A DNA stretch of 64,000 nucleotides, from assembly GCA_000469685.2 (NCBI GenBank), contig LS997567.1, forward strand, positions 11,049,325 through 11,113,324, given 5' to 3'. The notes under the pieces were generated by a model. It was given only the letters and a program-made list of their open reading frames with translations, ran no database searches and had not been told where the DNA came from. The translations under genes and the position numbers were made by a program. This document shows, piece by piece, positions 29,401-39,302 of the stretch. This stretch comes from Haemonchus contortus. Its lineage: Eukaryota; Nematoda; Chromadorea; Rhabditida; Trichostrongylidae. Numbering within the stretch: position 1 is the first letter of the stretch; every line of letters begins with the position of its first letter.

Positions 29401-30093
29401 CTCGTAACAAGATCCTGACTGTAATTTTGAATACCGTACCTTTAGGGGACTCTGCTCGATGAGCACCTAAAAAGGTCTCCACCCTTGCTCGACTTAAGCC
29501 CTCCAACCCCCTATCGTAGAATTCTCCGTTTGCCTAGTTCAGTCACCCGATCCAGCTCCTGTCCGCCCTTACGATATCCCAATTAAGCAAAAGCAAGACC
29601 CCTTATGAAATGCTATAATGCATTTTTTAAAAACGGGCGATCTTTCGCCGACAGCGTCCGACTTCGACAAGATCGAAGCCATGGCACTCGCAGACCCTTG
29701 CTCGATTCGTAAGAATGGTTGCCTTTACAGAACGTGTCAACTACGCTGACGCAAGTACGAGACTCTTCTTCTCCCTGTTAAGCATCGTGAGCCCGATTGC
29801 ATTGCCTTTCACAACAGCCCAACATCTGACGTCAACCATTTTGCTTGGAAGAAAACAGTAGGCAAGATTGCTCGTAAGTTCCTTTGGCCAACTATGAAAG
29901 AAGATGTGTATCGTTACGTCCGCTCTTGCGACGCACGTCAGAAAAAACGAAGTCATCCGGCCAACCGCGAGCACCTTTTACCAATGCTCGCCGAAGCCAT
30001 TTTTCATAAGGTTTATCTCGATCTAAGTAGACCTTACCACACATCATCTTCTTCTAATTAATATATCATGTGCCTCATTGATCACTTTTCTAA

Positions 30094-31870
30094 CAAGGGA
30101 AAGATACTTATCGAAAATCTGTGTTCCAAATCTGCTAAACGATTCTGGGAACAAAGTTACGGGACCGATGCCTCCTTGTGTTATACCACCCTAATGAATG
30201 GATCACCGAGCCGAGCAAACACTGTATCTGTGCAGCGGTGGCCGAGCGGGTAGTGTAGTGGACTGAGAGACATGGCAGGCATCAAGGTTCGATCCCTTGA
30301 TGCATGCGCTCGTTTTGCTTTTCCATAAAATGTGTTCTAAACGCTTGCAAAACGTTTTTAGGCTCAATATTGGGCATCTACGGAGCTCCCGCACAATTTA
30401 GGATTCCGGGGAATAGTAATTCGATGAAAAAAATTACCACTACTGACCGTATATATATGTACGCCTCCGAACACTCAAAATAGTGTTCCGAAATCTTCGG
30501 CAACTCCTTGCATCACTTACGGTAGATGGCGGTCGAATGAGTCATCCGACCACAGCCCTCTTTGGGAGGGACACGGCCCTCACGTTCTTCGAATACTGTC
30601 CGCGCTTTCAAAGCGGAGGTAAAAGTCAACTGGCATTGTTGGGGAAATACTGTAGAACAATAATTTATCGCTTTATGTGCATATATGATTATCCGCGAAC
30701 TCTATTCTTGAGGAAAACGCCCTTTCAAGAGACCATCCATGGCAAATGTGATGGTGCGGTGAGGCATGGTACCATGATGCTGTACACAAAACCCTGAATC
30801 CACCAACGGCTTGCTTTGAAGTTTTCTCCAATGGTCCTCCATTGTTGATTTAAAGCGGTATCCGGTGGAAATGACTGCCGTGTAAAGGGATCACTTATAA
30901 AAATATCCGCTGTTCTCCATAGGTGGGCAGATCGGTCCGCTTGTTTTGCACCTAATAGTTGCGACCAACCAAAAAACTCGAACTATAGGAGACTATCGAC
31001 TCATCTACCAGCGCCATGAAATTGGAGCTCATTGGTCAGATCACAAACTTGAAAGCTACGTTTCACTGCGGAACCTCTACATCCTTCCGAAAGTGTGCGT
31101 CCATCGTCGCTGTCATCATCAGGCGACCGCAGAGGATCATTGTGATCGCCTTTCACGGACTCGACTTCCTCACAAAGGATAACGGGCTTATTTTCACAGC
31201 ATCGATAAGTGCGGTTTGAAAGCTCTTCATTACCGCCCCTTCCTAGGTGGTGCCCACGTTATGCTGCAAGAACGAAAGTTCTCCATCAGGTATGATGACA
31301 CCACCTTTGGTCAGAATATTTGCTGTTAACATATAGAATAGCTTTTGACGCGATGAATCATTTGAAACCTTCCTCCTTGAAGCTTCTTGAACCCATTTTG
31401 AGCAAATGCTCAGAATTCCTCTTTTGTTCGAATGTAACTCCAGTAACTCCACCCTTATTCGGCAGGTGAGGGGCAAAAAAAACCTCCCTTATAATCCTTT
31501 TCAGTGTTCCTAAATTTTGAGGGAGCTCCGTAGATGCCCAATATTGAGCCTAAAAAGGTTTTGCAAGCGTTTAGAACACATTTTATGGAAAAGCAAAACG
31601 AGCGCATGCATCAAGGAATCGAACCTTGATGCCATGTCCACCAGTCAACCACACTACCCGCTCGGCCACCTTTGCACAGATACGGTGTTTGCTCGACTCG
31701 GTGATCCGTTCATTAGTGCGGTATAACACAGGGAGGCATCGGTCCCGTAACTTTGTTCCCAGAATCGTTTAGCAGATTTGGAACACAGATTTGAGATGAG
31801 CGTTCGAAACCACCTACGGGGATATACATCTCATCTTGAATGGCCACTGCGACCAAGTATCCTTCCCTTG
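30094..31870. mobile_element. Foldback TIR transposon, family 2, with tRNA-like module in each arm
   Basis: TAA flanks both ends (30091-30093 and 31871-31873), and the integrase frame FS/KYVIA is restored when it is removed. Termini are CAAGGGAAAGATACT and, reversed, CAAGGGAAGGATACT. The arms of about 400 bp are inverted copies; each contains a tRNA-like module (A box TGGCCGAGCGG, B box GGTTCGATCCC). The loop of about 800 bp has no transposase and is conserved, in opposite orientation, in the copy at 58213-59552. A remnant lies at 41101-41400. The 3-bp TAA/TTA duplication is PIF/Harbinger-like. Confidence 0.88.
30234..30310 (+). promoter_or_regulatory. tRNA-Ser/Leu-like module in the left arm of foldback family 2
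   Basis: A box TGGCCGAGCGG at 30239-30249 and B box GGTTCGATCCC at 30286-30296, the latter inside a clean T-arm (CAAGG, loop, CCTTG extended by AT/AT). The mirror copy has A box 31658-31668 and B box 31615-31625. The ends do not form a tRNA acceptor stem, so a functional tRNA is unlikely; it looks like a tRNA-derived Pol III promoter. Confidence 0.7.
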
Positions 31871-38887: not shown

Positions 38888-38899
38888 GGTGTGGGGAGG
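38888..38899 (+). promoter_or_regulatory. Polypurine tract before the 3' LTR
   Basis: GGTGTGGGGAGG lies directly before TGTAGTAGG. Such a purine run primes plus-strand DNA synthesis in LTR elements. One T interrupts it. Confidence 0.55.
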
Positions 38900-39302
38900 T
38901 GTAGTAGGTCGTAAGAGTTATGGGAATGTAAGAGAGTAGAAGACTCAGACGAACTCTTATTATTTCTTCGTCATTGTTTCCTGGGGGGAGATTGCAATTT
39001 GGATAAGGCTTACGAGATTAGAGGGCAGAGAGCATATTAGGTTACTCATGTCTCATGCTTCGTACTCAGACTCGCGAACGGCAACATCTGGTAAGGAAGC
39101 TCGACCGCCGCACACGAGAGAATCACGCCTGCCGCCTTCATAGACTCCTGGCCTTCATCGGCAGTCACCTCTGGACTCACCGCCTTCCAGACAAGGACAT
39201 CGACTGGACTGATACTCGCACACGATCATATTAATAAACTGATTGTTTATTCACGTCTTAGTCGCGCACAGTCTGCTGAGCGGTGTGACCGCACCTATTA
39301 CT
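38900..39302 (+). repeat. 3' LTR of the Gypsy-type element
   Basis: It starts TGTAGTAGGT and ends ACCTATTACT, imperfectly inverted ends as in retroviral-type LTRs. It contains AATAAA at 39233-39238 as a likely polyadenylation signal. No second LTR copy is in the window, so the boundary rests on the terminal motifs and the polypurine tract. Confidence 0.55.

What the first reader, a model, noticed from the sequence alone, without database searches (positions are those of the whole stretch)
29640..39302. Gypsy-type retroelement with a UPF1-like helicase ORF between integrase and 3' LTR
Seen: integrase with DDE residues and GPY/F-like tail, then on the same strand a long intronless ORF with SF1 motifs (FGTGKT, VGDIHQLEPHV, VDSVQGREKD, RLNDTLSRCRHG), then a purine tract and TG-starting terminal repeat with AATAAA. 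Known: the slot between integrase and LTR usually holds env or a small accessory ORF; I know of no described LTR retroelement family carrying a UPF1-type helicase there. Inference: the helicase is part of the element, perhaps to unwind or protect its RNA from nonsense-mediated decay. The lack of introns fits retroelement cargo and not a nematode host gene.
Basis: partly seen in the sequence, partly recalled or inferred. Interest (0 to 1): 0.88.

Follow-up and report, generated by a model that had tools for sequence, protein, structure and literature searches.

The report
Nematode LTR retrotransposons carrying UPF1-like helicases
A family of jumping genes in parasitic worms carries, besides its usual copying enzymes, a gene for a UPF1-like RNA helicase that selection keeps intact; the copy in this window is an old, broken member.

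Summary
The window copy is a relic: pol is 5'-truncated (29512-32772), the helicase (33135-38794) is split into changing frames, and two inverted-repeat elements interrupt it. Relatives in the same 283-Mb genome (Haemonchus contortus by protein matches) show the intact layout: a 14.2-kb Ty3/gypsy element with identical 419-bp LTRs, TSD, tRNA-Met primer site, gag-PR-RT-RH-IN, a helicase ORF (1294 aa), hairpin, polypurine tract. Integrase loci at least 60% identical to this clade have a helicase downstream in 45 of 51 cases, distant ones (<37%) in 0 of 64 (capped lists). Integrase and helicase diverge in step (r 0.94, 13 elements, 3 species). Helicase dN/dS is 0.07-0.16, like pol. Strong homologues with a named source were all strongylid nematodes. 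The core is nearest UPF1 by sequence and fold, without a detected CH domain. Nine paper searches found no description; SF1 helicases in insect LINEs are the nearest precedent. Function is inferred: remodelling element RNA against decay or silencing, or help in reverse transcription. Side finding: three tandem copies with altered ATPase motifs but intact frames look domesticated.

The parts
29512..30093 (+). remnant of pol upstream of and including the integrase H2C2 zinc-binding domain; 5' end of what is left of the element
   Evidence: 63% protein identity to L009/L010 pol; Integrase_H2C2 E 2.1e-11
30094..31867 (.). later insertion with long terminal inverted repeats (arms 30107-30403 and 31508-31800) splitting the integrase
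   Evidence: inverted repeats I1 and I4; gap in pol homology
31868..32772 (+). integrase catalytic core and GPY/F-like tail, frame broken
33135..35002 (+). N-terminal part of the helicase gene, several frame changes
   Evidence: 41-71% protein identity to the L009 helicase
35003..37052 (.). later insertion with long terminal inverted repeats (arms within 35001-35674 and 36124-37003) splitting the helicase
   Evidence: I2, I3, I5-I7, I10; gap in helicase homology
37053..38794 (+). C-terminal part of the helicase: RecA core with motifs FGTGKT, GDIHQL, VDSVQGREKD, RLNDTLSRCRHG, broken by a stop and frame changes
   Evidence: 58-79% protein identity to the L009 helicase; AAA_12; stop inside 37029-37868
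38867..38882 (+). decayed copy of the conserved hairpin found just upstream of the polypurine tract (2 mismatches)
38893..38899 (+). polypurine tract GGGGAGG
   Evidence: same motif before the LTR in relatives
38900..39302 (+). 3' LTR, with AATAAA at 39233-39238

Best explanation
The window holds a decayed copy of a strongylid-nematode lineage of Ty3/gypsy LTR retrotransposons that carries a UPF1-like SF1 helicase gene between integrase and 3' LTR. SHOWN: the layout LTR - tRNA-Met primer site - gag-PR-RT-RH-IN - helicase - hairpin - polypurine tract - LTR in extant copies; recent spread of copies that carry it; divergence in step with integrase; purifying selection; UPF1 as the nearest known core. 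INFERRED: the helicase was acquired before the sampled strongylid genera split. It is made from its own spliced or trans-spliced mRNA, as an env gene would be, because an acceptor-like site precedes its start codon and a small intron follows. The protein (disordered N-terminus, a conserved domain of about 300 residues, a stalk/1B-like module, two RecA domains with the catalytic motifs) would bind and move along the element's own RNA. I favour remodelling of that RNA-protein complex so that full-length RNA, whose gag-pol stop codon is followed by about 4.6 kb before the LTR, escapes decay or small-RNA silencing (about 0.45); help during reverse transcription or packaging is next (about 0.3). 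The confidence below is for the element and its helicase, not for that role.
For: Layout: 20 loci fetched; long pol ORFs directly upstream of helicase ORFs in many of them; gag with a weak Ty3_capsid match (E 3.3e-4, below Pfam's cut-off) and a CCHC knuckle (E 4.6e-7); primer site matching a tRNA-Met 3' end. LTRs: 13 of 15 same-strand LTR pairs of the L024 subfamily and 3 of 4 of the window subfamily enclose a helicase hit; the copy C6:38433237-38447441 has two LTRs each 100% identical to the query. Target-site duplications: 4 bp at 7 of 8 L024-subfamily pairs read and 5 bp at the eighth. Linkage by integrase identity: 45 of 51 loci at 60% or more, 8 of 19 at 44-60%, 1 of 4 at 37-44%, 0 of 64 below 37%; one of the six exceptions proved to be a helicase with an internal deletion (L050). 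Co-divergence: Mantel r 0.94, p 1e-4 (the floor of 9,999 permutations), 13 elements from 3 species. Selection: helicase dN/dS 0.100 (L023/L025), 0.066 (L016/L017 C-part), 0.161 (L014/L015); pol 0.113 and 0.145. Other species: gene models joining helicase to integrase or gag/RNase H in Oesophagostomum and Heligmosomoides. UPF1 nearest by sequence and fold.
Against: The window's own 5' LTR and most of pol are gone, so membership rests on relatives. Of two window-subfamily LTR pairs read, one shows no duplication and one matches at 3 of 4 bases. Only 54 of 150 helicase hits have a listed integrase upstream. Two L024-subfamily pairs and one window-subfamily pair hold no listed helicase hit. L012, L013, L018, L019 have helicase ORFs but no detectable pol. 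Acceptor-like sites: 7 of 8 copies against 2.3 expected, one of the 7 being the pol-less L013, and L023 lacking one within 150 nt. Pairs with a broken or pol-less partner show weaker constraint (0.28-0.33). Hit lists were capped, and a planned Pfam check of the 0-of-64 control never ran (server busy). No expression or biochemistry was measured.
Confidence: 0.9

Rival explanations
1. Chance neighbours: a decayed integrase beside an unrelated host helicase retrogene that happened to lie before an LTR.
For: The window copy alone is broken, 5'-truncated and interrupted.
Against: The same order recurs at dozens of places, inside LTR pairs with target-site duplications, and in other species.
Confidence: 0.02
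2. Hitchhiker: the helicase is a transduced host gene that rides along and does nothing for the element.
For: No function measured; deletion copies with LTRs spread without most of pol; UPF1 is a host gene family.
Against: dN/dS 0.07-0.16, similar to pol; intact frames and catalytic motifs across divergent subfamilies; co-divergence with integrase over 13 elements and 3 species.
Confidence: 0.05
3. Replication helper: the helicase acts in the virus-like particle or nucleus, unwinding RNA structure or RNA-DNA hybrids during reverse transcription, or in RNA packaging, with the hairpin by the polypurine tract as a possible site.
For: Catalytic motifs kept; hairpin within about 30 nt of the polypurine tract in 14 of 20 loci, with paired outer change A-T to C-G in L015 and L021 (not tested against shuffles).
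Against: Separate ORF with its own start codon and acceptor-like site, not fused to Gag or Pol in the genome copies; other gypsy lineages in this genome manage without it.
Confidence: 0.3
4. A host gene family of UPF1-like helicases gave rise to the element's gene several times, so element and stand-alone copies are mixed in origin.
For: Stand-alone intact ORFs exist (L013, L018, L019, L051).
Against: In the helicase tree L013 groups inside the element clade with L009-L011 (support 0.985); L018/L019 also fall inside, less firmly (0.709); helicase and integrase distances agree.
Confidence: 0.08

Closest known systems
Ty3/gypsy LTR retrotransposons, env-bearing ones in particular
   Same: Paired LTRs, short target-site duplications, tRNA primer site, polypurine tract, CCHC Gag, PR-RT-RH-IN order, a further ORF between integrase and 3' LTR
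   Different: The further ORF is a UPF1-like helicase and matched no envelope family; I recall no described Ty3/gypsy family with one
UPF1 (SMG-2, NAM7), the NMD helicase
   Same: Nearest solved relative of the core by profile (E 4.3e-57) and by fold (E 7.2e-24); catalytic motifs; helix-barrel-helix before RecA1 in the model, read by me as stalk/1B
   Different: No CH zinc domain among the Pfam matches of 10 members; own N-terminal domain without a confident PDB match; carried by a retroelement
SF1 helicase domains in insect LINEs (TRAS and Jockey-like; PMC5563155, passages seen)
   Same: An SF1 helicase kept by a retrotransposon; those authors discuss UPF1-like and silencing-suppressor roles
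   Different: Non-LTR elements, helicase in the ORF1 or ORF2 protein, nearest RNA-virus replicases rather than cellular UPF1
Nidovirus nsp13-type helicases
   Same: UPF1-like SF1 fold
   Different: Far weaker match: 5.4e-8 at best by profile, 2.5e-10 at best in PDB

Membership tests
Ty3/gypsy LTR retrotransposon | paired direct LTRs | tested here: met
   15 same-strand pairs in the L024 subfamily, 4 in the window subfamily; the window copy keeps only the 3' LTR
Ty3/gypsy LTR retrotransposon | short target-site duplication | tested here: met
   4 bp at 7 and 5 bp at 1 of 8 L024-subfamily pairs; 0 clean of 2 window-subfamily pairs
Ty3/gypsy LTR retrotransposon | pol order with integrase last | tested here: met
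   L024: protease-like 251-319 (below cut-off), RVT_1 602-762, RNase H 825-955, H2C2 1096-1155, rve 1176-1266
Ty3/gypsy LTR retrotransposon | tRNA primer site and polypurine tract | tested here: met
   13-nt match plus TGG to tRNA-Met, a tRNA-Met being called at 4 of 6 loci examined; GGGGAGG or close variant before the LTR
Ty3/gypsy LTR retrotransposon | RT phylogeny within Ty3/gypsy | not tested
   no reference RT tree was built
UPF1 orthologue | SF1 catalytic motifs | tested here: met
   five motifs in most intact copies; motif I not found by the pattern in L022, variants in L027, motif II and V changed in L018, L019, L051
UPF1 orthologue | N-terminal CH zinc domain | tested here: not met
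   no such family among Pfam matches of 10 members at E 0.05
UPF1 orthologue | role in nonsense-mediated decay | not testable with these tools
   needs experiment
LINE with SF1 helicase | non-LTR element with helicase fused to an ORF protein | tested here: not met
   LTR element with a separate helicase ORF
env-bearing gypsy element | envelope glycoprotein in the 3' ORF | tested here: not met
   Pfam lists helicase or P-loop families and no envelope family in the 3' ORFs scanned

The most novel reading that the evidence does not exclude
The lineage carries its own UPF1 look-alike as counter-defence against decay or small-RNA silencing, and the host has turned copies against the element: three tandem genes at C2 28.42-28.48 Mb keep intact 1164-1171-aa frames (dN/dS 0.29-0.33) while all three share a changed Walker B (DE to DN) and a changed motif V, as expected of an ATPase-dead, dominant-negative restriction gene of the Fv1 kind.
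Probability: 0.12. Interest if true: 0.92.

Novelty: new variant of a known kind. Interest (0 to 1): 0.77.

Why it matters
The slot after integrase is where LTR elements pick up env and become virus-like. Here it holds a cellular-type RNA helicase that selection maintains, which points to RNA surveillance or silencing as a pressure that elements meet with their own UPF1-like enzyme. It also gives a testable source for the 'set of helicase domains' that the 2013 H. contortus genome paper lists among expanded gene groups (PMC4054779, passage seen): some or all may be retroelement genes, which I did not test against that paper's gene list. Masking them would change gene-family counts in strongylid parasites.

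Tried and rejected
Rejected: chance neighbourhood; viral SF1 origin as in insect LINEs (UPF1 clearly nearer); helicase-less members of the clade, for the one exception followed up (C6:16948695), which is a deletion inside the helicase; the TATA-like TATTTCAG in the LTRs as a splice acceptor (dropped by eye). Led nowhere: viral-contig scan (no match); N-terminal domain fold search (best E 0.029; many top titles are cold-shock or other small barrel proteins, only a lead); PDB second look (library absent); Pfam AAA_12 genome scan (server busy). Nine paper searches found no LTR retrotransposon described with such a helicase; Repbase and subscription journals were not searched.

Full report
WHAT IS IN THE WINDOW. 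The stretch is one decayed retroelement copy on the + strand. Pol homology begins at 29512 and runs through the integrase to about 32772; upstream RT, gag and a 5' LTR were not found. Helicase homology runs from 33135 to 38794 as 12 tblastn segments in changing frames, with no stop-to-stop frame over 158 aa. Two inverted-repeat inserts split the integrase and the helicase. A hairpin remnant (38867), polypurine tract (38893-38899) and 3' LTR (38900-39302) follow.

THE GENOME. The window lies at G000:C6:11049325-11113324 in a 283-Mb assembly of 7 contigs. Annotated Haemonchus contortus proteins match its loci at 99% or more (P0001, P0004, P0013), so I take it to be that species. The 154-aa helicase piece gave 150 listed matches (150 of 258 candidates scored), many in frames over 1100 aa.

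INTACT RELATIVES SHOW THE ELEMENT. Of 20 loci fetched, many have a long pol ORF ending a few hundred bases before a helicase ORF of 1149-1294 aa. In L024 the pol ORF has protease-like, RVT_1, RNase H, H2C2 and rve matches in that order; upstream lie a weak Ty3_capsid match and a CCHC knuckle. Integrase hits sit in open frames of up to 2373 aa. The L024 LTR (419 bp) has 39 listed matches. They form 15 same-strand pairs, 13 with a helicase hit inside; the window's LTR forms 4, 3 with one inside. The copy C6:38433237-38447441 is 14.2 kb with both LTRs identical to the query. Junctions of 10 pairs were read: of 8 in the L024 subfamily, 7 have a 4-bp and 1 a 5-bp duplication; of 2 in the window subfamily, none is clean. 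The 5' LTR is followed by a primer site complementary to the 3' end of tRNA-Met: the 13-mer occurs 174 times in the genome, partly as the elements' own primer sites, and a tRNA-Met was called at 4 of 6 loci examined.

LINKAGE AND CONTROL. I took 150 listed integrase hits to L024 (150 of 534 candidates scored) and asked for a helicase hit within 9 kb downstream on the same strand. By identity band: 20 of 21 loci at 80% or more, 25 of 30 at 60-80%, 8 of 19 at 44-60%, 1 of 4 at 37-44%, 0 of 64 below 37%; none of the hits at 44% or more had a helicase upstream. Of the six exceptions at 60% or more I read one, and it holds a helicase with its middle deleted. In the other direction 54 of 150 helicase hits, and 31 of the best 60, had a listed integrase upstream; the shortfall has known causes (capped list, deletion copies, decay) but was not resolved copy by copy.

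CO-DIVERGENCE AND SELECTION. Integrase and helicase distances over 13 elements (11 from this genome, one each from Oesophagostomum dentatum and Heligmosomoides polygyrus) correlate at r 0.94 (Mantel p 1e-4, the floor). Helicase dN/dS is 0.100 (bootstrap 0.056-0.168), 0.066 (0.024-0.133) and 0.161 (0.128-0.203) in three pairs; pol is 0.113 and 0.145 in two. L014 in the third pair has broken pol and L016 a split helicase frame. Pairs with a broken or pol-less partner are less constrained: 0.28 (L013/L012), 0.31 (L010/L028).

WHAT THE HELICASE IS. The profile's best solved match is UPF1 (E 4.3e-57), then NAM7, SEN1, SETX, DNA2, IGHMBP2. A predicted structure of the Nippostrongylus homologue P0027 (mean pLDDT 72.8) also matches UPF1 best (E 7.2e-24), against 7.4e-18 for the best viral model. 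No UPF1 CH domain appears among Pfam matches of 10 members. The N-terminal domain, modelled alone from P0033, had no PDB match at E 0.001 or better. Two protein searches, each scoring about 8,000 candidates, gave 18 of 21 and 28 of 36 hits from strongylid nematodes, all at E 1e-50 or better; the remaining 3 and 8 were weaker than 1e-23 or unnamed and belong to other SF1 helicases where named.

EXPRESSION SIGNALS. An acceptor-like site lies within 150 nt before the helicase start codon in 7 of 8 copies (2.3 expected in Markov shuffles). In L009 and L013 a short GT-AG gap after the first exon is needed to join the start codon to the main frame; the gene models P0004 and P0001 are consistent with such gaps in L013 and L020. 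A hairpin (AGTCCG-loop-CGGACT) precedes the polypurine tract in 14 of 20 loci, with a paired C-G change in L015 and L021; it was not tested against shuffles.

STAND-ALONE COPIES. L018, L019 and L051 (C2, 28.42-28.48 Mb) keep frames of 1164-1171 aa with dN/dS 0.29-0.33, while all three have DN for DE in motif II and QSLE for QGRE in motif V. Four pol queries found nothing in L018 and L019; L051 was fetched too short to test. They look like domesticated derivatives, a reading not tested further.

MECHANISM AND NOVELTY. The role is inference. A kept ATPase core, a separate ORF in the env slot and a gag-pol stop codon about 4.6 kb before the LTR suggest an enzyme that remodels the element's own RNA against decay or silencing; a helper in reverse transcription or packaging is the main rival. 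The nearest precedent is SF1 helicases in insect LINEs (PMC5563155, passages). Nine searches of the held library showed no LTR element with such a gene. I call it a new variant of a known kind.

Noticed in passing
G000:C2:28418998-28479000 region (L051, L018, L019): Three tandem helicase copies with intact frames, altered Walker B and motif V and dN/dS about 0.3: candidate domesticated, ATPase-dead genes; an annotated protein (P0013) matches L019 at 99.8%.
   Followed up: partly
L009, L010, L015-L017, L020-L028, near position 9100-9550 of the oriented loci: Conserved palindromic hairpin just upstream of the polypurine tract, 14 of 20 loci, with a paired change in two.
   Followed up: partly
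window 47803-48990, minus strand: 395-aa ORF with DUF5641 (E 4.4e-7) and a weak, below-cutoff phlebovirus-glycoprotein-like match (E 0.006): probably the end of a BEL/Pao element with an env-like part.
   Followed up: partly
window 21741-23919: A 2.2-kb, 99% pure GTCT tetranucleotide array.
   Followed up: no
window 12596-13054, 24380-24865: Two arrays of a shared 128-bp tandem unit; a 127-bp array at 5370-5822 was also found.
   Followed up: no
G000:C6:11036097-11046096 (L028): Another broken helicase-bearing element, 91% identical to L010 over long stretches, lies a few kb before the window's start.
   Followed up: partly
G000:C1:17.5-17.83 Mb: The tRNA-Met 3'-end 13-mer repeats at 142-bp steps, suggesting long tandem tRNA-Met arrays.
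   Followed up: no
window 28100-29040: Remnant that looks by eye like a non-LTR reverse transcriptase just upstream of the integrase, unrelated to this element's pol.
   Followed up: no
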